A stretch of 64,000 bases of DNA from assembly GCA_028825445.1 (NCBI GenBank), contig JAPKAD010000007.1, forward strand, positions 1 to 64,000, in the 5' to 3' direction. Source of the DNA: Octadecabacter sp. (GTDB taxonomy: Bacteria; Pseudomonadota; Alphaproteobacteria; Rhodobacterales; Rhodobacteraceae). The translations under genes and the position numbers were made by a program. The notes beneath the pieces are model-generated. The model was not told where the DNA came from and made no database searches. It was given only the letters and a program-made list of their open reading frames with translations. Within the stretch, counting starts at the first letter, position 1; every line of letters begins with the position of its first letter. Shown here piece after piece: positions 1 through 18,309 of this stretch.

Positions 1-152
1 GATAGGTTCGACAGGATTGTAAGGGTTTCAGGCTGCTCTAGCGTTGACAATGTTGCTGGGTGTGCAGCGATCAATGCGATAAGAACTGCTGGCTGCTCGG
101 GGGGGGCTAGATGCGTAATCTGGGTTAGAATAGTTCGGATTTGTACTGGTGT
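1..152. repeat. Exact in-frame repeat, copy 2 (cut by window edge)
   Basis: These 152 bases are identical to 478-629. The offset is 477 bp, exactly 159 codons, so both copies encode the same ~50-residue stretch (beginning TPVQIRTILTQI) of the tape-measure protein. The copy reaches position 1, so its true left end is unknown. It includes an 8-G run. Confidence 0.95.
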
Positions 153-2267
153 TAGCGCGCTGGTGGGCTGTGCTGCAAGACTTGGGATGTCTATGTCAGG
201 TGACACAGGCGAAATAAGAGCCGCGACTGTTGGCTCTCTTTGCCCATTCGCTATCATTTCCAGCACTGAATCGATTTGTTCTGCCGAATTTTGTTGTGCG
301 GGTCTAGCCTTATGATTGTCGGATGCTCGCTGGTTCATTTCAAGGGTTTGCAAAAGCCGCACTATTTCGTTTGAAGCATTATGGCTAAATGGCAAGGCAT
401 TCCAGCGGTCGAGTAATGCGCGGCGGTCAGACTCTGTTACGGCACTAAATTGGGCAATTGTGGCTTGTAACTCAGGGGATAGGTTCGACAGGATTGTAAG
501 GGTTTCAGGCTGCTCTAGCGTTGACAATGTTGCTGGGTGTGCAGCGATCAATGCGATAAGAACTGCTGGCTGCTCGGGGGGGGCTAGATGCGTAATCTGG
601 GTTAGAATAGTTCGGATTTGTACTGGTGTAATTGTTGGCAAAAGGTTGCGATCAGCATCTGATGATGCTTTCCTTTTAACCTTGGCTTGCTGTGCTTCTG
701 GAAGACTTTCAGGGTCTGGTGAGGCGCTGAACACACGGTGCAGGACGTCTGAAAGTTCTGCAACAGTGTGTGTGCCTACGTCATGTTTCTCCAGGATTAA
801 AGTACTCGATTTTTCTTTGAAATGGCGTAGAAGTCCCCAAATGTGCCTAGATACTGACCTGTCTAGGCATAATTTTGGGCTATCTTTAGGTCTCAAAATT
901 GGTGTTTCTGATGGATATGTAATCTGCAGGTTACTCTGATTGGCAGTCCCGTCATTTAGTATCAATTTAGGGGGAATTTGTCCGTTATTTATTTTGCCTA
1001 CCGGCGCTGGGGATTGCGCCGATGCGGTGTACTGCTGTGCGGTTTCAAGTGCGTGTCGCAAAGAGGCTGCAAGTTGTGTCTTGTCTAGAGTGGTGTCGTG
1101 CTGTCCCAGCAATGCCAAGGCCGCTGGGTCGGTAGCGATCAATTTAAGAAGGTAGGCAAATTGTTTTGGTGGGGAGAGGCCTGCCAGTGCTGAAAGGGTT
1201 AATTGAACGTTAAGGTGTGTTGCGAATGTGACTTGTACAATGGTGGCTGCATTCAGCGAGTGGTGCAGCTTGTCCAGTGCGGTCGTCATGTAGAGCAACA
1301 GCGTGTCAATATCTTTGATTTGAGGTGAAAATATGCGCTTTGGAAGTGATATATCGGCGATTAAAGCGACTAGTGTATTGGTCAGAGCAGGGTATTGGGA
1401 CAGAAATTTGCGTACGATTTGCAGACTTTTTGGATGCGTCGGTATTTGCGCGAGCAGTTTCTTCGCTAGTACGCGTGTTTGGTTATGTAAAAAGCGGCTT
1501 TGGGCTGCAATGGTGTTTAACGTGGCTGGGTTTTCTGCAACTTTAGTCAAAAGTTGTTCAAGAGTGCCGTACTGTGCAATTAAACCAGGTTGCAAACGTG
1601 CGGCTGCTAAAAGGCCTGCCATTTGTGACGGGGTATCCACCAAGGCTTGCATTAGGTCCGGCAATGTCACTGGGTTGGCGGCGACGTAGGCCAGAAGCGT
1701 TGCAAGCTGATGATTGGGCGCGTATGAGTCAATGCTTTCCAACAAAACACGCACCGTGAATTTAGATAGTAATGTGGCGAGTTTTGGGTTGGCCATTGCT
1801 TGAGCACGTAATGATGAGTCATCGCGCAGTGCAGCGTTCAAAGCGCCGGTCTGATCGGCGGGCGCCTTGGCTAAAATATAAGCAAAAATCTCGTGTCCCT
1901 TAAAAGTCCGAGATGCCTGTAGGGCGGGTACCGTTTGTACGACCAGTTGAGGAGTTTTTTGCAAATGAGGGTCAAGGATTGCACGCAATTTCTGGGTTAG
2001 TACATGGCGGACATCCGGCCAGTTGGGATCATCAGGCCATCTGCCCAAATCGATCTCAACGTGAGCGAGTGTGAGAACCAGTTCTGAATAGGGAGGACTT
2101 TCTAACAAGTCAGATAAGGCAGGTAATATCTGTGATCGCGTTATGGCCAAAAGTAGTTCAGGCGCGGAAAGTTTGCCTTGGGCCGCTGTTACATTAAAAT
2201 TAGCCTGCACGGTATTGATCCGTGCGGCTGGTGGTGGCACGTGGGGCAGGTGCGCAGGTGTGCTCAT
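1..2267 (-). CDS. eCIS tape-measure protein (CIS_TMP family), 3' end beyond window
   Basis: An open frame of 755 codons runs from an ATG at 2267 to the left edge with no stop. The N-terminus (residues 1-110) fits the contractile-injection-system tape-measure family: a short Pro-rich leader, then a helical segment 'ILPALSDLLES' followed by 'VEIDLG', matching the usual pattern of 'LPALEEL...IDRLELDLG'. In this family the protein is thought to set particle length inside the tube (Afp14/Pvc14 role). The rest is Ala/Leu-rich and helical, with a recurring motif of the form xxxPxTLxxL (near residues 205, 255, 305, 445, 575), suggesting a solenoid-like or coiled repeat. Residues 547-597 recur exactly at 706-755. 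The start overlaps the stop of the Pvc12-like gene as ATGA, so translation is probably coupled. The family assignment is by pattern recognition; the start is well supported. Confidence 0.82.
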   Translation of the reverse strand, partial: MSTPAHLPHVPPPAARINTVQANFNVTAAQGKLSAPELLLAITRSQILPALSDLLESPPYSELVLTLAHVEIDLGRWPDDPNWPDVRHVLTQKLRAILDPHLQKTPQLVVQTVPALQASRTFKGHEIFAYILAKAPADQTGALNAALRDDSSLRAQAMANPKLATLLSKFTVRVLLESIDSYAPNHQLATLLAYVAANPVTLPDLMQALVDTPSQMAGLLAAARLQPGLIAQYGTLEQLLTKVAENPATLNTIAAQSRFLHNQTRVLAKKLLAQIPTHPKSLQIVRKFLSQYPALTNTLVALIADISLPKRIFSPQIKDIDTLLLYMTTALDKLHHSLNAATIVQVTFATHLNVQLTLSALAGLSPPKQFAYLLKLIATDPAALALLGQHDTTLDKTQLAASLRHALETAQQYTASAQSPAPVGKINNGQIPPKLILNDGTANQSNLQITYPSETPILRPKDSPKLCLDRSVSRHIWGLLRHFKEKSSTLILEKHDVGTHTVAELSDVLHRVFSASPDPESLPEAQQAKVKRKASSDADRNLLPTITPVQIRTILTQITHLAPPEQPAVLIALIAAHPATLSTLEQPETLTILSNLSPELQATIAQFSAVTESDRRALLDRWNALPFSHNASNEIVRLLQTLEMNQRASDNHKARPAQQNSAEQIDSVLEMIANGQREPTVAALISPVSPDIDIPSLAAQPTSALTPVQIRTILTQITHLAPPEQPAVLIALIAAHPATLSTLEQPETLTILSNL
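478..629. repeat. Exact in-frame repeat, copy 1
   Basis: This is the upstream (in coding sense) copy of the 152-bp repeat found again at 1-152. Sequence diverges immediately after 629/152 on the coding 5' side, while the other boundary cannot be judged because copy 2 is cut off. Base-perfect identity inside a diverged helical gene points to a recent duplication or gene conversion. Confidence 0.95.
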
Positions 2268-4486
2268 AGCGTGGAGACAGCTGTGTGGTTTAGGAATATG
2301 TGCAGGTCGAGTGATGTCGCCCTGTTGTCTATAAGTGCCTGAAAGGCTGCAGTTTGATCAACGGACAGCCAATGTAGTTTGAACATAAGATGGGCGGGTG
2401 CATGGTCCTCCATCTGGGATTGTACGTAGTTGCGATAGTTTTCCAAAGCACATCGAGCGGTCCAATTTGGTAGCACCAGATCGGCTGAATAAGCCGGGTA
2501 GGGATCGTTGCCCGCGGACAACACTGGTTCAATAAGGTGCAGGCTCTCAGATCCGCGATTTAGCATGCGCCACGTTGTACGCAAACGCGCAGCACATCTG
2601 CGCGCGTCTTCATGTGGGTCGTTTAAAGTGTTGGGGTCGCGGGAAAATGCGGTGATGTACCAAAGAGGCGCGTTATTGCCCAAATCCGCGACGACCTGCC
2701 ATTTGCCCTCTTTTGCAGGGAGTATAAAGAAGCAATCTGGATCTGATAGCCTGCGTAGCAGCTTTGATGTAATTGTATTGTTGCTCACAAATGGTGAATA
2801 GTTTTCCAGTTGAGCGGCGTCGAACGGTTTGGCGCTGGGGATCTCAATTGGGACTAGATCTAGTAAATTATAAGTGCGAATTGGAACAATTTTGATTCCT
2901 GTCGGCATCGTTTTTAAAGGTGCGTTGGGTGCCACTTTCAACCCATAGGATTTGAGCGTTGGGGTGGTGTGTGGTACCGTCGCCAGATCTAGATCGCACA
3001 TGAGCGACAGCATTGATAAGAATCCGCCATGCTCTTTCAAGTTTGGGCTTGGTCCTATGCCGCGTGCAGATTGTGCGCGTGGCAATATGTCGAGAGCATT
3101 TAATCGCCACTGAATTTCGAACCGGTGTATCGAGGATGTGCATCGGTAACAATGAATGCCTGTGTGGAAGTTGTTTGGCATCTCGACCCCTTGCAGCGCG
3201 ATTAGATAATTTAAAAGGGCTATACGTTCACGGTGGACGACGGGGTCCGAAAAGTCTGCTACGCGGTTCGCCTGAAACGTGTCTGGCAAATCTGTCAGCG
3301 CAGCGTTAATACTTTCCAGAACGCAGTTGATTGCTTGCCGGTACTGCGAAATTGTTGAACCGAGCTCGTCAGGTTCGTATCCTGTGGAGCGATAAATGTT
3401 GGGCAAAAGACTGTCGACATGGCTTTGTGAACTGACGCGTGGTCTGCCAGGCTTCATCACGTCCCAATCGCTTGCCAAAATGGGATGATGGGTGTGGGCC
3501 AAACGTTCAGCGTGGATGCGAACGTATTCTTCGTGGATAATAGTTGAATCTAGAGGTAGGTTTACGCCATTGAGGGTCAGCTCTAGCTGCAAAAGTTGTC
3601 GCGCTGCCGTTTCTAAACGATTAAGGTTTACATCGCCTATTTCGAGTTCGTCAGGCAAGGCGCAGTGAAAAAAGTACGCGTTAGCGGGCAGCGGCTTGGA
3701 CCCGTCGGGAAGCCTCAGTTCCAAATGGTAGATTTCAAGAACGCCTGACAGCTGGCGAATAGCGGAAAGTTCGTTTGCGAGGCTCAACGTTTGCAGTTTC
3801 GCATTGTGGTTTAGGTTTGAAAGCCGCTCAGGTGCATCATAGACTTGCCGCCGAGTTGCGCCGGTCTGCGTTTGTGCCTCGCTATCTAGCCCAGCCAGCA
3901 TGTCGAAGACAACATGGTAGATATGCGCCGCAACTGTTTCCGGTAAAGTTCCGGGAGTAATTTCTATTTGGCCGGCGAGCGTTACATTGACGCGCTGAGC
4001 AATGTGAACAGCGTTCAAGGCGGTACATAGTGGACGTCTGCGTGCGAATGCGATGCGTACAATATTTGTGAGTTCTTCATGCTGCATCGAAGTGTAATGT
4101 GTGGGAAAGACCGTGATGTCATATTGCCCTGGAAAGGGCGCACCACGCGGGGTCAATTTTACACTTTCAATATCGTCGCAGTCGCTGATCCACGATTCGA
4201 TATCGCTGTGCGTAACAGGCTGGCCTTCCAACACTTTGCGTGGGTGAAACATGCCGATTTCACGAAACAAAAAACTGTGACGCGGCGTCGTCAAGAGGTC
4301 ACGGATCGGCAGAGCACTTTGATAAGCCAGTTGACTGAGTGCAAAGCAGGTTTGTTCCAGTAACGTCACACCAGGATCATGGACGTTATAATCGCTCCAT
4401 TGCTCGCGCGATGCGTCTTGCGCATACTGAATGGCAATGCGGCGCAAATCGCTAAATTCAATTAGTGGAGCAACAGTTTTTGTCAC
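2264..4486 (-). CDS. eCIS baseplate protein, Pvc12/Afp12-like
   Basis: A 740-aa protein. Residues 8-60 carry the hallmark of the Afp12/Pvc12 baseplate family: a helix then 'WSDYNVHDPGVTLLEQTCFALSQLAY', whose core DYNxHDPGVTLLE is highly conserved in eCIS loci. In characterised particles this protein forms part of the hexameric baseplate wedge with Pvc11 and helps attach the tail fibres. It starts inside the stop of the fibre-like gene (ATGA at 4486) and ends inside the start of the tape-measure gene (ATGA at 2267), so the three genes are probably translationally coupled. Length is in the usual range for the family. No signal peptide or membrane segment. Confidence 0.85.
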   Translation of the reverse strand: MTKTVAPLIEFSDLRRIAIQYAQDASREQWSDYNVHDPGVTLLEQTCFALSQLAYQSALPIRDLLTTPRHSFLFREIGMFHPRKVLEGQPVTHSDIESWISDCDDIESVKLTPRGAPFPGQYDITVFPTHYTSMQHEELTNIVRIAFARRRPLCTALNAVHIAQRVNVTLAGQIEITPGTLPETVAAHIYHVVFDMLAGLDSEAQTQTGATRRQVYDAPERLSNLNHNAKLQTLSLANELSAIRQLSGVLEIYHLELRLPDGSKPLPANAYFFHCALPDELEIGDVNLNRLETAARQLLQLELTLNGVNLPLDSTIIHEEYVRIHAERLAHTHHPILASDWDVMKPGRPRVSSQSHVDSLLPNIYRSTGYEPDELGSTISQYRQAINCVLESINAALTDLPDTFQANRVADFSDPVVHRERIALLNYLIALQGVEMPNNFHTGIHCYRCTSSIHRFEIQWRLNALDILPRAQSARGIGPSPNLKEHGGFLSMLSLMCDLDLATVPHTTPTLKSYGLKVAPNAPLKTMPTGIKIVPIRTYNLLDLVPIEIPSAKPFDAAQLENYSPFVSNNTITSKLLRRLSDPDCFFILPAKEGKWQVVADLGNNAPLWYITAFSRDPNTLNDPHEDARRCAARLRTTWRMLNRGSESLHLIEPVLSAGNDPYPAYSADLVLPNWTARCALENYRNYVQSQMEDHAPAHLMFKLHWLSVDQTAAFQALIDNRATSLDLHIFLNHTAVSTL

Positions 4487-5409
4487 AGCACACCCTTATC
4501 CCTATCATTTGAGAATTGGTCATTCATTATTGTAGAGCCGGCCATTTGTTCATCAAACCAGAGCTGCGTAATGGAATAGCGGATGAATTGGGTGTCAGTC
4601 CGCCCTGAACGATCCGGTAAAAGTCGGTTAAAATTGGCGTTGGTGCAGACTTCTAAGATGTATGAGTGCTGGTCTGGTCCATAGACCCAACGTAGACGAA
4701 GTCTGTCAGCGTAACTGTCATACATTGCCGTCTGGATTTTTATTGAGCGCCGGCGAAACCACCAGTTCAAAATTGGATTGCGTGGCTGATAGGCATTCAT
4801 TGCAATGGCATGCATTAGGGAATAACGCCCGTCGCCGGGGTGGCCACCTGCACCAGCGGTGACCTCAAGAATGTGACAGCCGGTCATGGGTTGGGTAATC
4901 GCATGCCAACCTCCATCCGCTTTAACATAAGGAATGTCATAGCTGGTGACGCCGATCCGGCCCTGCATTCGTGCTACGCCGCCTACATCTAATCGCCACT
5001 TGGGATCGTCTTGGTTGACACCTACGCACCCTTTCTTGGTCAAGGTTAGGTTGGGGGCGTATAATTCGGGTTTTTTTGGGCTTACCGTTTTAGCCATTTC
5101 AGTTTTTTCGACGCCAGATTTCGTTAAGGCTGCTTTGCCAATGTCTGGGCGGATGTGCAGTGATTCATCGGACTTATCACCATGATCAAACACCCAAGAC
5201 GGTTTGGCAGTGCCCAGTCCCTCGTAAATACTCAGGATCCGAAGTGATCCGCCGCTGGACGCCAGTTGGATCCCATCTTCACTGGTTTTAGCAAAACCGT
5301 CATCTTTAATGTTAACGGTACTTTCGATCAAATCGCTGTATTCTTCCTCAGATGGTAACGCGCCGTGACGGAAGAAGGCCTTCAGCGTTGTACGGTCTTG
5401 TTTCGTCAT
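4483..5409 (-). CDS. Putative eCIS tail-fibre / adhesin-like protein
   Basis: A 308-aa protein in the fibre slot of the operon. The N-terminus (residues 1-50: 'TTLKAFFRHGALPSEEEY') looks like a baseplate-docking segment seen in fibre-like proteins of other eCIS clusters. The middle (about 118-150) has a stretch 'GCVGVNQDDPKWRLDVGGVA', which resembles the 'VGIGT..P..KLDVGG' repeat of phage fibres. The C-terminal ~150 residues ('GCHILEVTAGAGG', then aromatic-rich strands) resemble a compact receptor-binding tip. It could decide which surface the particle binds. It is much shorter than Afp13-type fibres and has no adenovirus-knob-like repeat region. Function is inferred mainly from position and the fibre-like motif. 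Confidence 0.6.
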   Translation of the reverse strand: MTKQDRTTLKAFFRHGALPSEEEYSDLIESTVNIKDDGFAKTSEDGIQLASSGGSLRILSIYEGLGTAKPSWVFDHGDKSDESLHIRPDIGKAALTKSGVEKTEMAKTVSPKKPELYAPNLTLTKKGCVGVNQDDPKWRLDVGGVARMQGRIGVTSYDIPYVKADGGWHAITQPMTGCHILEVTAGAGGHPGDGRYSLMHAIAMNAYQPRNPILNWWFRRRSIKIQTAMYDSYADRLRLRWVYGPDQHSYILEVCTNANFNRLLPDRSGRTDTQFIRYSITQLWFDEQMAGSTIMNDQFSNDRDKGVL

Positions 5410-8400
5410 GTAAGAGTCCTTTGGCCTACGATAAGCATGTCGCCCACGCCCAAACTGCCGATGCCAGCAGGAGTTGGGCTCTCGTCCGTAAGAGTGTCTA
5501 CGAGTTTAAGAATATGATCAGCAGCGGAAAGTGGCAGACTCCATGGGAAGCGCGGGCGCAAAATAGGTCCGTGCTGACCGCGCGGATCTGTTTCGTTTTG
5601 TGCTGTATCCAGCAGTTCAAACCGAGCGGCGTCGTTACCAGAAAAGTGAAGCATAGAAAAATCACTAACGTCTTTTACATAATCGAGTTGCATGAGGTGG
5701 GCGCGCAGCATTTGTTTGTTGAGCTGCCAGCCAAACCGACCCAGTGAACGTGGTGCGGTCCAGACCGATAGGTATTTAGCGATTTCAGTTTTTAACATTT
5801 TTGCCATAACACCATCTTCTGTTTGCGATTTAATCGCAATTTTGGCGCGCATTTGAAGCCGTTCAAACGTCGGGTTTACAACCTCAATTTTGGCAAACTC
5901 AGATGCGTGATCACGGAGAAAAAATCTCATTTTTTCAAGGGTGGCAACATCAAATAAGTGTGGCGCGTAATGCGGGACATCTGTGCCTGGCGCGGGTGCG
6001 CGCAAAACAATGACGGTAAGATGTCCAGGCGCTGGGGTGGGATGTGAGCTTGACAGATGTGGCATGCATTTGACTAACCATATTTCTGTAAAATTCTGTA
6101 AAAGCAGGCGTTCAATGTCCCAAGGTGTAACTGCGCGTTTGCGATGCCTGAGTCGTTCGCTGACCCGCGCTGTAAACGTATCCTGAAGCTCATGTGGACG
6201 CGCTGGTTTTGGTATGACCATTTCGCGAATTGTCGTGATACCTTTTTGCGCTGGCGAGAATGACCAACTGCGTGCTGTTTGTTGTGCGCGCAACGTGTTG
6301 TCGGTGCGTATGGCCCATACGCCACCGACCTTGATCTGATGTAGCTCGGGGAAGATATCGAGGCGCGGCCGCGTTGCGACTGCGGCAATCCAGACACCAC
6401 CGGGTGGCATTTCAGAGGAATGATCAATTGCATCAGCAGGCAAATCAAGTAACAAAAGACCTGAATTCATCAAGCCACCTGTCGTGTCAGAGGTAAACGC
6501 GGTATCAGGCAATGCGCACCATCCATCTGCTGATAAATAATGCCATTTGATCGGGTTGTTTGTTGGTACAGTTCGAAGGTGCCCTGATTGCGTAGTTGCG
6601 AAGGCCAGCGCTATTGGACCTGCAGTATGAGATCCTTTAATTTGAATGTATAATTCTCCAAATCCGAGCCGTTTGGGAAACAAACGCGCCTGACGCAGCT
6701 TACGGTTTGGATAAATCTCTATTTTTCCAAAAGGACCCACTTGCGTGACACAGTCGCCACTATTTGCAGCACTTGGGGCCATCAGTTCGATCGTGGCGCT
6801 AGCGCAGTAATTGAGAGAGAATTGCGCAACCGTTGGTACAAAAGGCGCCTTTGGCATTGGTTTTTTAGGCAAAGGTAAATAACCAGGCCTCATCGCTTTG
6901 ACTAATGCCAGTGGATACAGATCTGCGTTAAACCCATCACCAGTCCCACTCAGCGTCATGCGAATTGCACCCGCGCGCATAGATTGGCGCGACTTGAATT
7001 CTTTCGCGCTGACAGTGCCAGCTGCGGATATAGAATGCCCCGTAACACGGCCGTTAAAAGTCCAGTTCGCGAGAAGCTTGCCCGTCACTCCATTGGAATT
7101 AAATAGTGGCTTTAGGGTTCTGCTGACAGGCCGCCAGCCATCCCCGCTGAGGTAGTCAATAGAAAGCTGTGGATTAGGAATTTGGGCAGCCTTCGTATAT
7201 GAGGCGTAGTGAGCTTTGAAACCTCCAATCTCGGGGGGCATATCTGTCCAGTCAATTGAGACGCCGACAGCCGTTACTGGCTTGCGTGCCATTTCGGGGC
7301 TGCCAGCTATAAAGGTGGCCCCATCCTTTGGGCGTGGGCCAAACGGTTGAAACTTTTGGTCTGTGACGACAGGTGCATCATCGGAAAAAGCAGCTAACGT
7401 TTTTAGCCCTGTGACATCCACGTCAATGCCGATGCTTGAGATTGAGTAGCGTTCAAAAAATGACACTGGGCAAACGCGTGGGGTCTTTGCATAACGCAAT
7501 TCTAGCAAAGGCGCATCTGGTATGTCTTGTCCAACAAGTGCGGGTGAGCTGGCGTTAAACAACATGCTAACGACAATGCCACTGGTCTTTTCACTGTCCT
7601 GCAGTGGCATGATTTGAACTATATCAGGTTTGCGCGGTCCTTCTTGCGTGCTGATAGTCAGGTCAAGCGCTTCGCCAAGAAGGCTTTGGAACAAGTCCTC
7701 TGGAGTATCGGTGGGTTTGTCGTTGGGGCTTTTGATGAAAGCTGCGTAGATCATCGATTTATCGTTATTTTTGAAAAGTTTATGGTTGTGAATTAAGCTT
7801 TGAATGTGTGCTGAGTAAGGGCCAGAAGGTAACGGAATGTTTTCCAACATCGATATCGTCAGGATGCGCCTCAAAATCAGGCGCAATTGTGCATCTGTTT
7901 TTACCATGCGAGAAAGGTATTCGTACACCAAACTCAAGGATAATGTTTTGTCACTGGCAGCCGCATAATGCCCAATTTCACGCGAATGATGTAGTGCTGT
8001 TTGTGATGTGTCGTTACCGAAAAAGGCGAGTATTAGCTCAGGATCACTAAATAGGGCCTGACGCAAATCGGGGTCAACATAGGTCTGGTCTTGCAACACA
8101 TCTTTGGGCTTTTGCGCCTTGTGTCCGGCGTGGGACCAATGCGCTGCTAAGTCTTTGGGTGGACTTTTCGTTATCCATTCAGAAACTGCTGGCAGATTGG
8201 ACGCGCGTGTCATGTTTAGCTTCAGGTCGATGCGCCGCTTACCCTGTGCCAGTGAGAACATCCGCGAGACGATATCGAGTCCCATACGCAGAGGTTGTTT
8301 TTGGCCCGATGAAAATACTGGCTGTGATTGATTTAATGCACCAATGGAAACCTGTGCTGCGCGCACCCCAGTGATCCCGTCCAGCGCTGTATTAAGGGAT

Positions 8401-9386: not shown

Positions 9387-9389
9387 GGT

Positions 9390-10322: not shown

Positions 10323-10327
10323 ATGTG

Positions 10328-10765
10328 TTAGACCGCCAGCACGGGCGTATCAGACACTAGGGTGCCTTCGTTGATATAGAAGGGAAATACCATGTTTGAG
10401 CGCGCGTTAGTCTGATCAATGGTATATTCCAACTGTACAGATATGCGCCCGTCTAGCCAGTCAACCACGTTGGCGCTGACCTCGATAAGAGTGATCCGCG
10501 ACTCATAATATAAGATTGCCTGTCTAATTGCCGTTTCGATAGCGGCGCGAGTGGTGCCATTTATAACTTCAAATACAAAATCTTGCAGGCGGCAGCCATA
10601 GCCAGGGTGCATGATCCGTTCACCTGGTCTTGTGGACATTAAAATGCGAAGGCTCTCAATAATATCTAGGTCATTTTGAACCAAGTTCGCTTTGCCATTG
10701 TTGGAATCAAAGCGAGGCGGGAAGGCCCACCCTCGCCCCTGGAAACCTGCGTCTTCAGCGTTCAT
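10328..10765 (-). CDS. eCIS baseplate protein, gp25/Afp9-like
   Basis: A 145-aa protein of the T4 gp25-like family (gpW/gp25 lysozyme-fold domain, not enzymatic in this role). The family pattern is clear: 'GWAFPPRF' near residue 12, 'IIESLRILMSTRPGERIMHPGYG' at about 35-57 and 'AIRQAILYYESRI' at about 78-92. In contractile tails this protein joins baseplate wedge to sheath and nucleates sheath assembly. It follows the PAAR gene by 3 nt, reversing the Afp9-Afp10 order of the Serratia locus. Confidence 0.92.
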   Translation of the reverse strand: MNAEDAGFQGRGWAFPPRFDSNNGKANLVQNDLDIIESLRILMSTRPGERIMHPGYGCRLQDFVFEVINGTTRAAIETAIRQAILYYESRITLIEVSANVVDWLDGRISVQLEYTIDQTNARSNMVFPFYINEGTLVSDTPVLAV

Positions 10766-10768
10766 ACG

Positions 10769-11059
10769 CTAACCTCCAATCATCACGTTTGGCGCGCCGA
10801 GGGCGATGATGCCGCCATGCGCCGTTGAGTCACCCATGCGGGCTGCAGGTTTGCCGCCAATCATCACCGTAGTAGAGCCATTGGCGATAGTTGTTGGTGG
10901 CCCCACGCAGATGCAATTGTCTCCCACAATAGCGGCGGGTAATTTCGCTATCAATACTGTTGCTTCCCCCGGTCCGAGGATCGGTCCCCCAACATGTGGT
11001 ACAGGTCCAGTACTCATTGGGCAAAATTGCATGTCTGTTAGTCTGGCTGCTGGTGGCAT
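10769..11059 (-). CDS. PAAR-domain spike tip protein
   Basis: A 96-aa protein that is essentially one PAAR domain: 'MPPAARLTD' at the start, then 'PHVGGPILG', 'VGDNCICVGP', 'IANGSTTVMIGGKPAARMGDSTAHGG' and a closing 'PNVMIGG'. His and Cys residues typical of the metal site at the needle tip are present. It should cap the VgrG-like spike encoded immediately upstream (21 nt gap) and may carry cargo. A good ribosome binding site (GGGGAGGG) precedes the ATG. No C-terminal toxin extension is present, so this is a plain tip. Confidence 0.95.
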   Translation of the reverse strand: MPPAARLTDMQFCPMSTGPVPHVGGPILGPGEATVLIAKLPAAIVGDNCICVGPPTTIANGSTTVMIGGKPAARMGDSTAHGGIIALGAPNVMIGG

Positions 11060-11080
11060 AATTTACCCTCCCCTTCGTTT

Positions 11081-12847
11081 CTAATTTATCATCACCATGG
11101 CGCCTTTGATGGTGGTTTGTCCCGAGGCAGATACTTCGGCAGTGGCGCCACCTTTACCTGTAAATGCCTCAGCGCCATCGCAGGTAACATTCGCACCTGT
11201 TATGCTTGCGTCTTGCCCTGCGGTTACATCAATTTTGCCGCTCGCATTTAATGTGATGTCGCTAGTGGAGTCCAAGGTAATGCCCTTATCGTCCAATGTG
11301 ATTGTGTTGCCATTGCTGTCGGTTAATTTAATTGCGGTTCCGTCATCGTCCAGCACAATGCTGTGGCCACCGGGTGTTTCCAGCGACAGGATTTTCTTTT
11401 CATCGTCAAATTCAATCTTTAGTTTTTCTGGTGTTATAATCATTTTTATAAAGTTGTCTTCTGTCGCCTCCAACGGTCGCGCGGCCGTGGCGTTGTGAAG
11501 TGATCCAAGAATTACTGGTGCATTGGGATCGTCGTGCAGAAAACCTACCAGAACCTCATCGTTTATCTCAGGCAAAAACTGGATGCCGGCGTCGCTTGTC
11601 GCATATGGCGTGCCCATTCTGGCCCAGACCAGTGTTTCGGGATCATCACTCAGCAATGGCAGTTTGATCTGAATGCGGTCTTTGTTGTCAGGGTCCTCGT
11701 GGCGTTTAACAACTACTCCAATCTGTAACCCTGGCACTGGTGTGGCAATTCCTGATGCTTGAGGTCTGGCCAGTCGAGGCGTGTCTGACACCCAGTCAAG
11801 GGGCAGCCCCATCCGGACTCGCGTGGTCCAGCTTCCACCTTCAATCTGATTAGTTAGGCCTGACACAAAGGCTACGCCGCTAAAACGATCGCTTGCGTTT
11901 TTGATTTCAAGCATATCTCCAGGAGCAATTGCACCAGATCCTATAAAACTACAACTGCCGTAGATCGCATCCAAGCCAGCGCGCATCATGCGCGCTTTGG
12001 CGAAAGATTTTAGCGCCGCATCAGAGGTATCTGCACCAATGGGGGTGGTCATTTCTCGTGGGCCGAGTACGCCAGCAATGATGCTGGCAGCTGTGTTTCC
12101 TATAGATGGGTCAGTCATTTGCGCCTCAGCACCTGTGACTACGGTTTGTGTCGTGGAATTCCATGCAATGTAAGTTGCACGTTCAATCATGCGTTGGCTG
12201 TCGATAGTCGCATCGTAGGTGATAATATCAACCCCAAGTGTTACCGTTAGTGCGGCTTTCTTCGAGAGGTCGGGAGCATTCACAGTAATTTTACCCGCAT
12301 CAACTTTGACCAGAAGACCGTTACGATCAGCCAGAAGACGCAAAAAATCCCAGTCAGATGAGTCAACCCTTAGCTGATCCCATGTCAACGTTGTGGGTTC
12401 TACAACAGACTGAAGTCCAGCATCATCGATAATCGCAGTTATGATGTCGCTATCTTTTTTTTCATTATATTTGACAGATTTGCGGACTTCGGTTAATTTC
12501 ATCGACTTGTCGCGGCAAAACAGTTCCAGCGACGTACCACGTTGGCTGTCCATCCGCAGACGTGTGTTCACAACGATGCCTTTAAAAACCATAGCTTCGG
12601 TTTCGTCGCCATAATACGTGGCAATTTCTATATCGCTACCAATTTTGAATTCATCAGAGTCAACCTCTGCGAATTCTTCAATCTCCACACCTTCTGACTG
12701 GATGGCAACCATGGCTTCAGGAATCCGGCCTATATCTTTATCGATCCGTACAGATGTGATCATCGTGTTTTCCGGTATCAAGGAGCCGTTCAATTTGATG
12801 GACAAGCCAAGGGGTCCAGTCGCACCGGCATCTGGACTGTTAGACAT
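11081..12847 (-). CDS. eCIS spike protein, VgrG / gpV-like (Afp8/Pvc8)
   Basis: A 588-aa protein. I choose the ATG at 12847, 8-9 nt after AAAGGAG, over an in-frame ATG 18 codons upstream with no such site. Residues 1-370 have the gp27-like hub pattern (phage late control gene D protein), including 'SSDWDFLRLLADRNGLLV'. Residues ~375-460 form the gp5 OB-fold ('QIGVVVKRHEDPDNKDRIQIKLPLL', 'EVLVGFLHDDPNAPVILGSL'). The rest is a repetitive beta-helix needle ('DSNGNTITLDDKGITLDSTSDITL'). It forms the central spike and receives the PAAR tip. Its start overlaps the end of the LysM gene by 8 nt. Confidence 0.93.
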   Translation of the reverse strand: MSNSPDAGATGPLGLSIKLNGSLIPENTMITSVRIDKDIGRIPEAMVAIQSEGVEIEEFAEVDSDEFKIGSDIEIATYYGDETEAMVFKGIVVNTRLRMDSQRGTSLELFCRDKSMKLTEVRKSVKYNEKKDSDIITAIIDDAGLQSVVEPTTLTWDQLRVDSSDWDFLRLLADRNGLLVKVDAGKITVNAPDLSKKAALTVTLGVDIITYDATIDSQRMIERATYIAWNSTTQTVVTGAEAQMTDPSIGNTAASIIAGVLGPREMTTPIGADTSDAALKSFAKARMMRAGLDAIYGSCSFIGSGAIAPGDMLEIKNASDRFSGVAFVSGLTNQIEGGSWTTRVRMGLPLDWVSDTPRLARPQASGIATPVPGLQIGVVVKRHEDPDNKDRIQIKLPLLSDDPETLVWARMGTPYATSDAGIQFLPEINDEVLVGFLHDDPNAPVILGSLHNATAARPLEATEDNFIKMIITPEKLKIEFDDEKKILSLETPGGHSIVLDDDGTAIKLTDSNGNTITLDDKGITLDSTSDITLNASGKIDVTAGQDASITGANVTCDGAEAFTGKGGATAEVSASGQTTIKGAMVMIN

Positions 12848-13547
12848 TTTGGGCTCCTTTGCCACGCATTGGTGGGAACCGCAGCAGTGTGTTAGGTTCA
12901 AGGTCGCGGAAATTATCTAGATCGTTGTGGCGCGCAATCGCGAGGTATTTGCCCGCGTCTTTATAGATCCTGTGGCACAGCATCGGAAGAGTATCACCAG
13001 TCTGCACGCGAACGACATGAGTCAAATCTGGCGAGCTTCGCTTAGCTTCTAATGCTTCTTGTGCAGCCGTTACAGCCTGAATGAAACTCAGCTGGATTTT
13101 AGCACGAAGCGCGGCTCCTTCTGGGTGAAATAAAGTATATTCCACGTTCATTGACGTTAGCCTACCAAAAAATTCTTTAAGCCCATCGCCCCAGACAATT
13201 TTCACTGCTGTTGGTTCATGTGCCTCTCCGTCGTAATCATAGGCAATCTTGCGAAGTTTTTCGATCTGCTGGGCTACTGTTTGATCCGCACTGTCGGGGA
13301 CCACTCCTGTACCATCGACGATCAACGTGAATGAGACTTTCTCTGGATCGGCCATAGAATATTTTGGAATGGGCGCAGACTTTCCCACGGGTGTGTCCCT
13401 GTCACCATTTGTGCCAGTATATTGGAGCGCATAGTCATGCTTGTAGCTTTCGGGGTTAATCGTAGCCTCAAAGGTATTCGCGGTCCCGCCTTTTGGCACG
13501 ATTTTATCTATCTGCATTGAGCAGCGGTATAACGTTAATTTAGCCAT
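12840..13547 (-). CDS. eCIS LysM baseplate/tube-adaptor protein (Afp7/Pvc7-like)
   Basis: A 235-aa protein starting at the ATG at 13547, which follows GAGGTGAAG and begins 'MAKLTLYRC'. A longer in-frame reading up to 13718 overlaps the upstream small gene and has non-protein-like sequence. Residues 20-150 match the N-terminal domain of the T4 gp53-/Pvc7-like family ('GGTANTFEATINPESYKHDYALQY' region, 'KVSFTLIVDGTG'). The C-terminal ~50 residues are a LysM domain ('VVRVQTGDTLPMLCHRIY ... NTLLRFPP'). In contractile tails it connects the spike hub to the wedges and tube. Confidence 0.92.
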   Translation of the reverse strand: MAKLTLYRCSMQIDKIVPKGGTANTFEATINPESYKHDYALQYTGTNGDRDTPVGKSAPIPKYSMADPEKVSFTLIVDGTGVVPDSADQTVAQQIEKLRKIAYDYDGEAHEPTAVKIVWGDGLKEFFGRLTSMNVEYTLFHPEGAALRAKIQLSFIQAVTAAQEALEAKRSSPDLTHVVRVQTGDTLPMLCHRIYKDAGKYLAIARHNDLDNFRDLEPNTLLRFPPMRGKGAQNV

Positions 13548-13551
13548 AACT

Positions 13552-13725
13552 TCACCTCTCGCGCGCGCGGCGGTCAGATTCAGCCAGTATGTCGTCAATT
13601 TCGCGAAGCAACATACGGCGAAACAAGTCCAGTTCAGTTTGTAATTCTTTTGTATTGTTGTGCATAGGCGCGCTTGTTGGCCCGAACTGGCCGCGAAGAA
13701 CCAAGGTCCCGATCTCAACCGCCAT
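13552..13725 (-). CDS. Small DUF5908-family eCIS protein (Afp6/Pvc6-like position)
   Basis: A 57-aa gene starting at ATG 13725 and ending TGA 13552, between the second tube gene and the LysM gene. It reads 'MAVEIGTLVLRGQF', a variable middle, then an amphipathic helix 'ELDLFRRMLLREIDDIL' ending in charged residues. This layout (short 'xxIEIxxLVIR' strand followed by one helix) and the location are those of DUF5908 proteins found beside LysM genes in eCIS clusters. It sits 3 nt after the tube gene stop. Its role in the particle is not established. Confidence 0.82.
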   Translation of the reverse strand: MAVEIGTLVLRGQFGPTSAPMHNNTKELQTELDLFRRMLLREIDDILAESDRRARER

Positions 13726-13728
13726 GTT

Positions 13729-14193
13729 TTAGGTCCTTATTATTTGATTGCAGGCTAATTCTATTGTTTCGATAACCAGTTCGTTTTTCATCGCGTCAAA
13801 CGTTGTTACGTCCCATTTGATTGGCCACGCGTTTTGCACATTAAATTCGCGCTGCGTGTCGCCTTCACGGTCTAACAGTTTGATTATAAGATCCATGGGC
13901 TCAATCTTTTTAACTAAACCTCCCTCGATGGTGTCCTTGCACCATTCCATAAGGTCATCTCTTGCTGGTTCCAGGCCGCGCTTTAATTTTAGTGTACCTT
14001 GCTTAACAGATGTTGGAAGGCGGTGTTGAAAGTCGTTCACACCACCTTCCAACACCGTTTCCACATCGATTGAACTGTCTAACCCGGAGACTTCTTGAAA
14101 CGCCGCCGCACTAACTGAACGTGACTTCCCTGAGAATGTCACCTCAAATCTGAACGCGGTGGGAATGTCCCAAAGATCCTCTGGATTAGGCAT
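13729..14193 (-). CDS. eCIS inner tube protein 2 (gp19-like, Afp5/Pvc5 position)
   Basis: A 154-aa T4 gp19-type tail-tube protein. I choose ATG 14193 (MPNPEDLW) because the alternative ATG 33 nt upstream lies deeper within the preceding gene; even so the start overlaps the first tube gene by 8 nt. The family pattern is visible: 'FRFEVTFSG', 'AFQEVSGLDSSIDVETVLEGG', 'LKLKRGL', and a closing 'VIETIELACNQI'. The N-terminal alpha/beta tube fold should form the baseplate-proximal tube layer as Afp5 does, with the upstream paralogue making the bulk tube. The two proteins are clearly paralogous. Confidence 0.9.
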   Translation of the reverse strand: MPNPEDLWDIPTAFRFEVTFSGKSRSVSAAAFQEVSGLDSSIDVETVLEGGVNDFQHRLPTSVKQGTLKLKRGLEPARDDLMEWCKDTIEGGLVKKIEPMDLIIKLLDREGDTQREFNVQNAWPIKWDVTTFDAMKNELVIETIELACNQIIRT

Positions 14194-14635
14194 TTTCGAC
14201 GACGAACCCTTCATGCGCCAGCTCAATAGTTTCCACCGCGACTTCGTTGCCTTCGGCCTTTAGTTCGGTACCGGTAATTTTGGTAGGGAAGACATTGACA
14301 AACTTCCAAACCATTGTTGGTGCGCCTTCTTGATCGAGTAGCGATATCACCATGTCTTTGCGTTCAATGGTGTTCATTTTAATTGTACTAAACCAATCAA
14401 ACAATTTGTTATCTTTAGCAAAAATACCCTTTTTTAGCGTTACATTGGATGATTTTAACATCCCGGGCATCTTGATGCTTGAAAAGACCTTGCTGTTGCC
14501 TGCACGGTATTCAATAACTTCTGTTTCGATATCAAGTCCGGACACTTCTTGACATGCCATTGCTTCGCCGCCAATTTCGACGTTGAAGCTGAACTTCGGA
14601 AGGGGCCAGATGTCGTCTTGAGCTTCGCCTGCCAT
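14186..14635 (-). CDS. eCIS inner tube protein 1 (gp19-like, Afp1/Pvc1-like)
   Basis: A 149-aa gp19-type tube protein with the family landmarks 'FSFNVEIGG', 'ACQEVSGLDIETEVIEYRAGN', 'VTLKKGIF', 'WKFVNVFPTKITGTELKAEGNEVAVETIELAHEGF'. Hexameric rings of this protein would stack to form the lumen through which cargo moves. It lies 21 nt downstream of the sheath gene. Here the order is sheath-tube-tube, with no tube gene ahead of the sheath as in the Serratia Afp locus. Confidence 0.93.
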   Translation of the reverse strand: MAGEAQDDIWPLPKFSFNVEIGGEAMACQEVSGLDIETEVIEYRAGNSKVFSSIKMPGMLKSSNVTLKKGIFAKDNKLFDWFSTIKMNTIERKDMVISLLDQEGAPTMVWKFVNVFPTKITGTELKAEGNEVAVETIELAHEGFVVENA

Positions 14636-14656
14636 CAGGGAATCTCCTTTCTAAAT

Positions 14657-16990
14657 TCAGGATTTTTGCATTTGCTGTTGGAACGTGATTTCGATGAATT
14701 CTGCTGGGCGGACGATGGCCACTAGAACAGTGATCAACAGTTTACCTTCGAGGATATCCACTGGAGTCATCGTGCTGCCGAGACCCACGTGAACGCTGAA
14801 CGCATCTTCGGGTATTGACCCAGCTAAACCTCCTGCTTTCCAAACTCCAGTTAGGAAGTTTTCAATCATTGCTTTGAGATTTACCCAAGTATTTGCGGTG
14901 TTGGGTTCAAAGACATAGGCCTTAGATGCAAGTTTGATCGATTCCTGCAACATGATCATTGTGCGACGAACGTTGACGTAACGCCAATCGAGGCTGTTGC
15001 CATCTAGGGTTCGTGCGCCCCAGACCAGTGTGCCTTCGCCTACAAAGGGACGTATGGCATTGATTGATTTGCCAGTTGTCGAAACGTTAAGATCTTCTTG
15101 TTGTCTGTGATCAATATTTACCATTGGTCCCGTGACCGCACTGACTGAAACATTTGCCGGTGCTTTCCACACGCCACGGCTATTATCTGTCGCCGAATAT
15201 ATACCTGCCATCGCCGCTGCAGGTGGCATCGTATTCATGTATTTTGTGACTGCATTCATTACATCAGTATATAATGGCACAATCGCGCGCATCGTTTTAT
15301 CAATTGTTTTGGCCATGTCATCGGGCGTGTCATCTGTCGACACAACTTCGTCCACAAGGATCTTGAGATCGTTGCGCTTCGAAGCGACTTCTCCCTTTGA
15401 CGTAATATATTGGACCGCAACTTCAGCCCCTTTGAAGGTTGGATTTGCGGCAAACGTGACTTTGTCTCCCGCTGCAGTCCAAGTCCCGATTCCGGGAAGA
15501 CTGCGTGTTTTACCCTCAACTGATATAACAGCTTTTACCTGCGCGTCGGTCACCGCTTTTTTAAGTTCTGGCGTTGAAGAAGGTGCGTCTGTTAGCGCCT
15601 TTTGTGCGGTCTGGACGTCAGGGTCATCTTTATAAACTGCAGATTTGTCTATAGGGTCAGCATCCACGAACTTGACGGAGCCCGGATCCATATCGTCAGT
15701 TAAAGTAAGCGAGATTTCTGCACCAGCCTCTATTGACGCCTTGGCAATAACACTGTTGCCAACCACAACTGAGATTTTCTTTTCACCAGTCTGCACGTCT
15801 TCGTTGTCTGTCACAATGACACCGAATGAGCCTTGCATTTCTCCATCAACACTATGGATAAAGCTGATCGTACCGTCGTCAATTTCAGCTTGACTGAATG
15901 TATAAATAGGCTTGGTTTTCGCAGCACCACGAACCAATGTACCAGCCATTGCCCCCGTCAGCATCGCGCGATCATCTTCATTCATATTGTCTGATGCGCC
16001 GACGACTTTATAGATCAAATCGATAGCGTCAGCTTGGTCATCTTCTGCTTTGAGGTCCTTAGGTAGGAGCTTGACAGTTCCACCAGCCGTCACTGAAATG
16101 GTCAAATCACCTTTGACCTCGGCCTTGCCAACTTTCAAGATTTCGGGTGTGATTTCCTTGTCCATTGATACAGAGCGTTTTAAAAGTGAAATTAAAAGTT
16201 TACGACTGGTAATTTCGACATTTTCAAATGTAAAATCACGGTTTTGAAAAACAGCACTGTCCAGCCAAGGGTAGTAGGCTGCCCCGTAATCCAATGCTTT
16301 GGTGCCAACATCACCGCGGAAACATTTAACCGGCTTACCCCTTGGTCCATCCAGTTCCAAATAGCCACCGTGTACATCTAGAATTGAGAAACGGTTTCGC
16401 ATTTCTGCGCCGCAATGCGCGAGCATCGCCTGCTGGACCTTTGCGGCGTTTTGACGGTTCAGCCGAGTAGTCTCGGGAATGACGACCATCGTGACTTCAG
16501 GTTCCTTCTCAAGTCCTTTTATTCCCCTAAGCATGGCTTCGCTATCGATTGGGGCTGTGTAATCTCCGATCGCCGTAATGTAGCATGTTCCGCCTCCATT
16601 GAGGAAAAACATCCGCATCGCCGAATACAGTGAGTAGGCTGTGTTAGTTTGAATTAGTTCGTACTTTTCGGGGCCACGTGGACCAATGACAGTGAACTCA
16701 GCCTGCGGAAGCATTGCGGCAGCGGCTGGATCTGCACCATCGGCGTAGGGGTTTTTCGTACGCTCTTTGAACGGTTTAAGATCAAATATAGGCCGTGGCG
16801 CACCACCAAATTTTGCTGCATAATCTGAAAATGTGGTGATGCGGTGTGGCGTGTTCCAGAGCGGTACGTTGCCGTTCATCGCCTTTTCAGTATAGCCAAT
16901 AAATGCGGGAACTGCGGTGGCAACCTGTACCACCGAATTGGGGAACGCGCTTTTCTCTACAATGTAGACGCCAGGGGTTTTCATGGCCAT
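14657..16990 (-). CDS. eCIS contractile sheath protein with large inserted beta-domain region
   Basis: A 777-aa tail-sheath protein, far longer than ordinary eCIS sheaths (about 350-500). Residues 1-270 are the sheath N-terminus ('KTPGVYIVEKSAFPNSV', 'VPAFIGYTEKA', 'NGGGTCYI', 'DVHG'), and residues ~565-777 are the sheath C-terminus ('GVWKAPAN', 'IRPFVGEGTLVWGARTLDG', 'WRYVNVRRTMIMLQESI', 'IVRPAEFIEITFQQQMQ'). Between them residues ~285-560 are an insertion not needed for the sheath fold. It contains a strand pattern like chondroitin-sulfate-proteoglycan repeats (361-397, 'YTFSQAEIDDGTISFIH') and one like CshA-type fibril repeats (501-535, 'GTWTAAGDKVTFAANPTFKG'). It is the only sheath gene in the window. 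Confidence 0.93.
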   Translation of the reverse strand: MAMKTPGVYIVEKSAFPNSVVQVATAVPAFIGYTEKAMNGNVPLWNTPHRITTFSDYAAKFGGAPRPIFDLKPFKERTKNPYADGADPAAAAMLPQAEFTVIGPRGPEKYELIQTNTAYSLYSAMRMFFLNGGGTCYITAIGDYTAPIDSEAMLRGIKGLEKEPEVTMVVIPETTRLNRQNAAKVQQAMLAHCGAEMRNRFSILDVHGGYLELDGPRGKPVKCFRGDVGTKALDYGAAYYPWLDSAVFQNRDFTFENVEITSRKLLISLLKRSVSMDKEITPEILKVGKAEVKGDLTISVTAGGTVKLLPKDLKAEDDQADAIDLIYKVVGASDNMNEDDRAMLTGAMAGTLVRGAAKTKPIYTFSQAEIDDGTISFIHSVDGEMQGSFGVIVTDNEDVQTGEKKISVVVGNSVIAKASIEAGAEISLTLTDDMDPGSVKFVDADPIDKSAVYKDDPDVQTAQKALTDAPSSTPELKKAVTDAQVKAVISVEGKTRSLPGIGTWTAAGDKVTFAANPTFKGAEVAVQYITSKGEVASKRNDLKILVDEVVSTDDTPDDMAKTIDKTMRAIVPLYTDVMNAVTKYMNTMPPAAAMAGIYSATDNSRGVWKAPANVSVSAVTGPMVNIDHRQQEDLNVSTTGKSINAIRPFVGEGTLVWGARTLDGNSLDWRYVNVRRTMIMLQESIKLASKAYVFEPNTANTWVNLKAMIENFLTGVWKAGGLAGSIPEDAFSVHVGLGSTMTPVDILEGKLLITVLVAIVRPAEFIEITFQQQMQKS

Positions 16991-17005
16991 TTCTAGGATA
17001 CTCCT

Positions 17006-17734
17006 TTAAAAAATCGAGATAAAAATGTCAGATTGAACGAAAGTCTGTGAGGATCCCGGCACAGGAACTGACACAAATTCGTGTCCCGCTGCAGGAAGCA
17101 CTGGGACGAGTGTTTTTGATCCAAATAAGCTGGGGGTCTTGAGCGCAAAGCGCTGTGTCGCCCTAGCGCGTGCTGGAAGGGCCGTGCGAGATCGCAAAAC
17201 ATGAGCGAGGCGACCATCGGGAAGTGGGACTGGGTCAATTTGATCGAAGAATATTTCTTCTTCCGGGTCTTCAATAATCGCAGATTTACTGCCGGGGCCA
17301 ATAACGTGATAAGCCCAGAAAGAAGTTACAGCGTCAAAGCTGATTGTAACGCGTCGACCTTGAGTTTGTGGTGCGACCCGCAAAAGTGCCAGCACCAAGT
17401 CACCCATTTTTTGCACCCCTGATGTCCCCGATAGTGGATTGAAATCCACGTCATTTTTACTATCAGGTACAGTGATAACTGGACATTCAAGCCAATCCGC
17501 GCCTTTGGTCACTGCTATTACACTTAGATCGGTTGGCTTTATCGCGAATTCGAGTACTGAAGGCACCTCTGTTGCGTCGGCGATGACAAGTACATCCTCG
17601 CCCTGACGGCGAATAAGAAGTCCCTGTGCAGCAAATGCAACAGCATCGTTGGGAACAATATTTATGGGAATTGGATTCGCTTGATAATAGCTGTGCCGCA
17701 CTTTTAAGCGCAGAATTTCACGGTATGTTCCCAC
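17006..17734 (-). CDS. Unknown protein of the eCIS operon, between DUF4255 and sheath genes
   Basis: A 242-aa protein starting with GTG at 17734, which shares one base with the TAG stop of the DUF4255 gene (TAGTG). I do not recognise a named domain. The N-terminus 'YREILRLKVRHSYYQANPIPINIVPND' followed by 'LLIRRQGEDVLVIAD' is strand-rich, and the C-terminal half has Pro/Ala-rich segments and ends in hydrophobic 'SDIFISIF'. No signal peptide, membrane segment or catalytic motif is evident. I recall proteins of similar N-terminal flavour beside sheath/cap genes in other eCIS loci, so it is probably a structural or assembly factor. The gap to the sheath start is 15 nt. Confidence 0.6.
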   Translation of the reverse strand: MGTYREILRLKVRHSYYQANPIPINIVPNDAVAFAAQGLLIRRQGEDVLVIADATEVPSVLEFAIKPTDLSVIAVTKGADWLECPVITVPDSKNDVDFNPLSGTSGVQKMGDLVLALLRVAPQTQGRRVTISFDAVTSFWAYHVIGPGSKSAIIEDPEEEIFFDQIDPVPLPDGRLAHVLRSRTALPARARATQRFALKTPSLFGSKTLVPVLPAAGHEFVSVPVPGSSQTFVQSDIFISIF

Positions 17735-18309
17735 TATACATCCTGCCTTGGTCGTGTGGTGTCTTCGGGCGTGCGGATGAGCGGCGTAATGTGAGATACG
17801 GCACCAGCATCAATTATTACTGAGCGCATTTTGAACATCACCGAAGGGACATACCGCCGCTCTAAAGCCCCCCACATCTGACTGACTTCCTCAGTGCGCA
17901 GATTTGCTATTTCAAAGGTTAGATTGGATAAGCCTGTGGGCATTTCAGGAAAACGTTCGGGGGTCATTACCGCGTTCGCTTGAAAAAACATCAATGCCGT
18001 TGAAATTAGTTTCAGTCCTTCGCTATAACCTTTTGGATCGTGTCCTGACGCGAGCATGAAATAAACATCGAGATGCATTGGTCTTCGGCCGCCTAATGGC
18101 CCACGCGCAGATTTTGGTTTAGCCCTAGAAACAGTGTCTTCGGTCAGATTTGTCATGAACAGCGCCAAACGATTATGGGTTTTGGCAGTGGGGCGACCTT
18201 CGGAGTCGCTGAGGGGTGCAAGGACAACAAGATCTTCTTGAACCGAGTAAATAGCGGACAAATGCGAATTTAATCTGCTGCAAACTAAATTTAGTGCAAG
18301 ATCAATCAT
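17734..18309 (-). CDS. eCIS tube-terminator / cap protein, DUF4255 (Afp16/Pvc16 N-terminal domain)
   Basis: A 191-aa protein of the Pvc16 N-terminal-domain family (DUF4255). Typical features are 'IDLALNLVCSRLN' at the start, 'TKTHNRLALFMTNLTEDTV' like the usual 'N.I.LSLVNIEE', 'PMHLDVYFMLAS' (usual 'PL.LDLYYLLTAY'), 'YSEGLKLISTALMFFQANAVMTPERFP' and 'LTFEIANLRTEEVSQMWGAL'. In Afp and PVC this protein caps the sheath-tube and fixes particle length. It is the first gene of the operon; no obvious ribosome binding site stands close to its ATG. Confidence 0.9.
   Translation of the reverse strand: MIDLALNLVCSRLNSHLSAIYSVQEDLVVLAPLSDSEGRPTAKTHNRLALFMTNLTEDTVSRAKPKSARGPLGGRRPMHLDVYFMLASGHDPKGYSEGLKLISTALMFFQANAVMTPERFPEMPTGLSNLTFEIANLRTEEVSQMWGALERRYVPSVMFKMRSVIIDAGAVSHITPLIRTPEDTTRPRQDV

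What the first reader, a model, noticed from the sequence alone, without database searches (positions are those of the whole stretch)
1..18309. Near-complete contractile injection system (eCIS) operon in a Rhodobacterales-like genome
Fifteen same-strand genes in tight order encode cap, sheath, tubes, DUF5908, LysM, VgrG, PAAR, gp25, Pvc11, fibre, Pvc12 and tape measure. There is one sheath (Afp has three), no tube gene before the sheath, and PAAR precedes gp25. No T6SS membrane proteins and no phage capsid genes are present. The AAA+ ATPase and any cargo must be to the left of position 1. The arrangement, plus an extra lipoprotein and a domain-decorated sheath, suggests a divergent subtype.
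Basis: partly seen in the sequence, partly recalled or inferred. Interest (0 to 1): 0.8.

Follow-up and report, generated by a model that had tools for sequence, protein, structure and literature searches.

The report
Membrane-linked contractile injection system operon
This marine-type bacterium carries the genes of a spring-loaded molecular syringe related to virus tails, and the gene set ends in a protein that appears to sit in the cell's own membrane, which suggests that the syringe docks to the cell envelope rather than simply floating away.

Summary
The operon is real: 15 minus-strand genes at 3-18309. Its nearest solved relatives are SalCis, tCIS and AlgoCIS (subtype Ib); one sheath, decorated, and a second cap protein are ordinary there. 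The window starts at a contig end. It follows the CIS ATPase in 58 of 61 loci, from Alpha-, Beta- and Gammaproteobacteria to Nitrospirota. In 390 genomes of the order it occurs in 17, the same 17 that hold the full-length lipoprotein; that slot is empty in the 10 beta/gamma/Nitrospira loci read there. An orthologue has a solved structure (9r9a), but I found no paper. Best reading: a CIS that docks at its own inner membrane and peptidoglycan, with a Rhodobacterales lipoprotein added, analogous to the T6SS membrane complex or CisA. Location and firing direction are inferred. No cargo gene was identified.

The parts
17734..18309 (-). Cap protein, Cis16A/Pvc16-like
   Evidence: Pfam Pvc16_N 3.8e-26
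17006..17734 (-). Second cap protein, cap adaptor Cis16B
   Evidence: profile match to PDB 9r9n_C, SalCis16b - cap, 5e-11
14657..16990 (-). Contractile sheath, 777 aa, with a cadherin-like insert at about residues 270-560 (about 15311-16183)
   Evidence: Pfam sheath and Cadherin_3; PHROG tail sheath; PDB 9r9h 8.9e-167; insert seen in alignment, absent in G369 and nearly so in G123
14186..14635 (-). Inner tube protein 1
   Evidence: Phage_T4_gp19 1.7e-48
13729..14226 (-). Inner tube protein 2 (start codon uncertain)
   Evidence: Phage_T4_gp19 6.9e-37
13552..13725 (-). Small 57-aa protein in the Cis6 slot
   Evidence: no Pfam hit; related small ORFs in 12 relatives
12840..13547 (-). CIS_tube protein with LysM-like end (Cis7)
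   Evidence: CIS_tube 3.1e-42; weak LysM 0.035
11081..12847 (-). VgrG-like spike (Cis8)
   Evidence: Phage_base_V 7.8e-21; VgrG families
10769..11059 (-). PAAR tip
   Evidence: PAAR_motif 1.5e-23
10328..10765 (-). gp25 baseplate protein
   Evidence: GPW_gp25 3.8e-22
9390..10322 (-). Lipoprotein, 310 aa, found full-length only with this CIS type in the order
   Evidence: lipobox Cys invariant in 14 of 14; full-length in 17 of 390 genomes
5406..9386 (-). Cis11 baseplate protein, 1,326 aa
   Evidence: PDB 9rce_A 7.7e-82, AlgoCIS 2.2e-57, tCIS 1.7e-35
4483..5409 (-). Short conserved fibre, Cis13-like
   Evidence: profile match of residues 1-41 to tCIS All3316, E 0.0034, weak
2264..4486 (-). Cis12 baseplate protein
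   Evidence: PDB 9rce_B SalCis12 8e-26
3..2267 (-). Tape-measure protein, first 755 aa, cut by the contig end; continues on contig C31 (4113-6011), followed there by the AAA+ ATPase (2783-4165) and the membrane protein (3-2798, rest on contig C28)
   Evidence: 55-nt exact overlap; CIS_TMP 4.7e-33 and AAA 1.1e-19 on C31; C28 piece

Best explanation
A subtype-Ib-like contractile injection system that assembles in the cytoplasm and docks on the producing cell's own envelope. The last gene of the operon encodes an inner-membrane protein. Its large periplasmic part holds a peptidoglycan-binding-like region and a catalytically dead GH18 barrel that probably grips peptidoglycan; its C-terminal tail would face the cytoplasm, where it could receive the baseplate. 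In Rhodobacterales a lipoprotein was added between gp25 and Cis11, perhaps the outer-membrane side of the same bridge. Firing would push the VgrG-PAAR spike through this site. Shown by computation: gene content, order, co-occurrence, GH18 fold of the model, loss of the catalytic motif. Inferred: topology, peptidoglycan binding, docking, firing direction and the place of the lipoprotein.
Against: No experiment shows docking or localisation; hydropathy alone gives the topology. Pfam sees a peptidoglycan-binding domain in only 2 of 27 members. Foldseek's best E-value for the barrel is only 2.8e-3. Some relatives have an eCIS_core gene near the operon, which fits a released toxin carrier. The residue after the lipobox cysteine varies (9 Gly, 4 Asp, 1 Glu of 14), so outer-membrane sorting is unsure. 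L166 holds the membrane protein without a CIS gene seen nearby. Matches in Dyella and Lysobacterales are weak (70-79 bits).
Confidence: 0.55

Rival explanations
1. A cytoplasmic CIS of the Streptomyces kind: under stress the membrane protein, as a CisA analogue, recruits it and it fires into the producer's own membrane, killing the cell.
For: CisA is a membrane protein needed for contraction and function in Streptomyces coelicolor (PMC12237407, abstract and one section). No cargo gene was identified here (for eCIS_core).
Against: CisA is bitopic with a cytoplasmic N-terminus, whereas this protein has an N-terminal secretion signal and C-terminal helices. An added lipoprotein is not needed for self-killing (inference).
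Confidence: 0.2
2. An ordinary released extracellular CIS; the membrane protein helps its release or its assembly.
For: All usual structural genes are present; a fibre is encoded; relatives have an eCIS_core gene near the operon.
Against: The GH18 domain lacks the catalytic motif in 27 of 27, so lysis by it is unlikely; the other CIS lineage in the order (G122, G141, G368) lacks the gene; the fibre is more conserved than the baseplate.
Confidence: 0.2
3. The membrane protein is an injected effector, not a machine part.
For: 68 predicted eCIS-associated toxins have a peptidoglycan-binding domain (PMC11297309, one passage); the gene is the last of the operon.
Against: Fixed position after the ATPase across phyla, secretion signal in most members and three C-terminal helices, no catalytic motif, a homologue solved with codes next to SalCis machine parts.
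Confidence: 0.05

Closest known systems
SalCIS (PDB 9r9h, 9r9i, 9r9n, 9rce and probably 9r9a; organism and paper not found)
   Same: Best PDB match of sheath, Cis11, Cis12 and cap adaptor; 9r9a_B is an orthologue of the membrane protein over most of its length.
   Different: SalCIS sheath is 519 aa against 777 here; no relative of the lipoprotein found in the PDB. That 9r9a belongs to the same set is inferred from the accession codes.
AlgoCIS, subtype Ib (PMC8894135, passages)
   Same: Single sheath with outward domains, cap plus cap adaptor; Cis11 2.2e-57.
   Different: Described there as released by lysis; the passages I saw name no such membrane protein or lipoprotein.
Thylakoid-anchored CIS of Anabaena (PMC8894136, abstract and passages)
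   Same: Related sheath and Cis11, fibre N-terminus weakly related to All3316; a CIS held in a membrane of the producer.
   Different: There the anchoring is by extensions of Cis12 and Cis13; here by a separate protein (inference).
CisA of Streptomyces CIS (PMC12237407, abstract and one section)
   Same: A membrane protein encoded with the CIS and proposed to bring it to the membrane.
   Different: CisA is single-pass with a cytoplasmic N-terminus; no sequence comparison was made.
T6SS membrane complex TssJLM
   Same: Lipoprotein plus inner-membrane protein with a large periplasmic part (recalled); an analogy only.
   Different: IcmF not found in the genome; TssJ and TssL were not searched for by profile.

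Membership tests
CIS of the AlgoCIS/tCIS branch (subtype Ib) | sheath and Cis11 closest to AlgoCIS, tCIS and relatives | tested here: met
   ranked above Pvc and Afp; no tree with the reference sequences was built
CIS of the AlgoCIS/tCIS branch (subtype Ib) | cap plus cap adaptor (Cis16A and Cis16B) | tested here: met
   Pvc16_N and SalCis16b, 5e-11
CIS of the AlgoCIS/tCIS branch (subtype Ib) | AAA+ ATPase and tape measure in the cluster | tested here: met
   on contig C31 with a 55-nt overlap
Extracellular CIS by mode of action | particles released from the producer | not testable with these tools
   needs microscopy
Type VI secretion system | IcmF/TssM present | tested here: not met
   none in the 88%-complete genome
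Prophage | capsid or terminase genes beside the tail genes | tested here: inconclusive
   none among ten flanking proteins scanned of 35; the flank on C28 was not profile-scanned; no phage record matches Cis11
GH18 hydrolase (domain of the membrane protein) | GH18 TIM-barrel fold | tested here: met
GH18 hydrolase (domain of the membrane protein) | catalytic DxxDxDxE motif (recalled) | tested here: not met
   absent in 27 of 27

The most novel reading that the evidence does not exclude
A cell-anchored class of CIS, spread over Proteobacteria and Nitrospirota, that evolved its own membrane complex independently of the T6SS: a peptidoglycan-gripping inner-membrane protein throughout, and in Rhodobacterales a lipoprotein completing a bridge through the whole envelope, so that the weapon fires outward from a living cell.
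Probability: 0.3. Interest if true: 0.85.

Novelty: new variant of a known kind. Interest (0 to 1): 0.6.

Why it matters
The described modes of CIS are extracellular release, the T6SS, thylakoid anchoring and cytoplasmic self-killing, and predictions of mode from sequence alone are said to be unreliable (PMC12998442, Introduction). A conserved gene that marks envelope docking would let many environmental CIS now filed as extracellular be re-sorted and tested, and would be a further, unrelated way of coupling a contractile tail to a two-membrane envelope.

Tried and rejected
Prophage: no support. T6SS: no IcmF. Plasmid-borne element: no match to the membrane protein or the lipoprotein in 72,556 plasmid records. 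IMG/VR scans: no relative of the lipoprotein or the membrane protein, one distant relative of Cis11 (26%, L196, not followed). Active wall hydrolase: thought unlikely because the motif is missing. Defence-system profiles: no hit for four proteins. A search for further conserved genes was first spoiled by antisense ORFs and repeated with a filter. The fibre model (pLDDT 57.5) was too poor to search. 9r9a is not among the 50 rows shown by either fold search, so I could not read its title. Paper searches for 9R9A, for 9R9H/9RCE/9R9N/9R9I, for SalCIS and for several Sal- genera found no such paper; a Cell Reports survey of eCIS was not held. A search restricted to Gammaproteobacteria could not be made. 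The window-level promoter and terminator scan found fewer sites than shuffles did, so it says nothing.
Full report
What is there. Positions 3-18309 hold 15 minus-strand genes in tight order. Profile searches confirm cap, sheath, two tube proteins, the CIS_tube protein, a VgrG-like spike, PAAR and gp25, and PDB sequence searches place the 1,326-aa and 740-aa proteins as Cis11 and Cis12. The 242-aa gene after the cap is the cap adaptor (SalCis16b, 5e-11). The sheath carries a cadherin-like insert (Cadherin_3 in 12 of 15 aligned sheaths). The 57-aa gene got no Pfam support for the name DUF5908.

The missing left part. The window is the first 64 kb of contig C135 of a 3.2-Mb, 135-contig assembly, 88% complete. 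It begins inside the tape-measure gene, at a 152-bp direct repeat (1-152 and 478-629, 100% identical). Contig C31 (6,013 bp) ends in the same repeat and shares exactly 55 nt with the window start, as a k=55 assembly graph would leave (inference). On C31 lie the C-terminal part of the tape measure (CIS_TMP, 4.7e-33), an AAA+ ATPase (1.1e-19) and most of a third gene. The C-terminal part of that gene is probably the piece at the end of contig C28, which shares only about 11 nt with C31. The contigs were not joined.

Linkage. A scan of genome contigs with this protein gave 61 loci. In 58 of 61 it follows the CIS ATPase, and 57 of 61 have another CIS gene. The three misses are L119 (gene cut by the contig end), L160 (a short contig with fragments) and L166 (no CIS gene seen nearby). 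The loci come from Rhodobacterales, Betaproteobacteria, Gammaproteobacteria, Nitrospira, Manganitrophaceae and others; matches in Dyella and Lysobacterales are weak (70-79 bits). In 390 genomes of the order 17 have the membrane protein. The lipoprotein profile hit 20 of 390, of which 17 are full-length and are the same 17 genomes; the other three, and a second hit in G350, are weak and partial. Of seven sampled genomes of the own genus, only the own one has the system. A sheath of some kind was found in 49 of 390; I read the surroundings of 20 of the 48 others. Thirteen of the 20 carry the lipoprotein: nine keep the operon in one order as far as the membrane protein, one runs off its contig, and three have it split or inverted. 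G122, G141 and G368 belong to another CIS lineage without either gene. G123, G130 and G026 show only a sheath, and G095 a sheath and tubes; G123's sheath is of the present type although nothing else is there. In 398 genomes of the phylum 6 have the membrane protein. Trees of VgrG and ATPase (25 rows each) put the carriers on one side of a branch (100/99 and 99/97); the sheath tree (29 rows) gives 81/99 and has long branches.

The lipoprotein. Its cysteine is invariant in 14 of 14; no Pfam family reaches significance and no PDB chain is a credible match. In the 10 beta, gamma and Nitrospira loci whose gp25-Cis11 junction was read, no gene lies there (the Nitrospira one has a 333-nt gap). The residue after the cysteine is Gly in 9, Asp in 4 and Glu in 1 of 14, so its sorting is uncertain.

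Known relatives. Sheath, Cis11, Cis12 and cap adaptor all match best to one PDB series, in which two chains bear the names SalCis12 and SalCis16b. Chain 9r9a_B, 'Uncharacterized protein', is an orthologue of the membrane protein: 1.2e-18 with the Rhodobacterales profile and 2.1e-49 with the wider one, with DGITL at the motif's place. That 9r9a belongs to the SalCis set is inferred from the accession codes. I found no paper on it. AlgoCIS shows that one sheath with extra domains and a cap adaptor are subtype Ib traits (PMC8894135, passages). tCIS is held in thylakoids by parts of Cis13 and Cis12 (PMC8894136, abstract and passages). CisA is a membrane protein needed for firing in Streptomyces (PMC12237407, abstract and one section). 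So a membrane link as such is not new to CIS. The passages of PMC8213781, PMC11297309, PMC12923769 and PMC12210884 do not mention such a component under the terms I searched.

How it probably works. The CIS assembles in the cytoplasm, docks through its baseplate to the cytoplasmic side of the membrane protein, which is tied to peptidoglycan, and fires through that site. The fibre is more conserved than the baseplate proteins (median identity 50% against 42% and 32%, 10 relatives), which fits a constant docking partner better than a changing prey receptor. Whether it fires outward or kills the producer is open. No eCIS_core protein was found in this genome, although ten of the loci read have a related gene near the operon, confirmed by Pfam in the two tested; this speaks for toxin delivery in those relatives.

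Verdict. Observation confirmed; interpretation partly supported. A new variant of a known kind: a subtype-Ib-like CIS with a dedicated envelope protein, shared with SalCIS, and a lipoprotein of its own lineage.

Noticed in passing
window 1-152 and 478-629: A 152-bp direct repeat, 100% identical, inside the tape-measure gene, at which the assembly breaks.
   Followed up: partly
L057:13493-17863 (minus strand), and the same module in 7 further relatives: Four genes upstream of the cap in 8 relatives (G034, G075, G218, G235, G263, G294, G347, G369): a solute-binding protein with a ligand-gated-channel-like match, a methyltransferase, a solute-binding protein with permease-like helices and a second membrane protein.
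   Followed up: partly
L057:18060-18686, L188:13213-13737: eCIS_core (DUF4157) genes near the operon, Pfam 3.2e-11 and 3e-26; related genes in ten of the loci read; none found in the own genome.
   Followed up: partly
L091-L094 (G141 and G368): In another CIS lineage of the order, very large proteins (1,823 and 1,730 aa) with hydrophobic segments lie between tape measure and ATPase.
   Followed up: no
L083 (G123): A sheath of the present type with no other CIS gene within the stretch read, perhaps a relic.
   Followed up: no
L166 (Nitrosomonas sp. MAG_20): The membrane protein with no CIS gene seen around it.
   Followed up: no
window 20106-20810: Minus-strand 234-aa protein with hydrophobic segments upstream of the operon, no Pfam hit; by eye its end looks like a winged helix, so it might be a regulator.
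   Followed up: no
L075:8001-12584 (G263): The CIS cluster seems to lack one tube gene, the LysM gene and part of VgrG, so it may be decaying.
   Followed up: no
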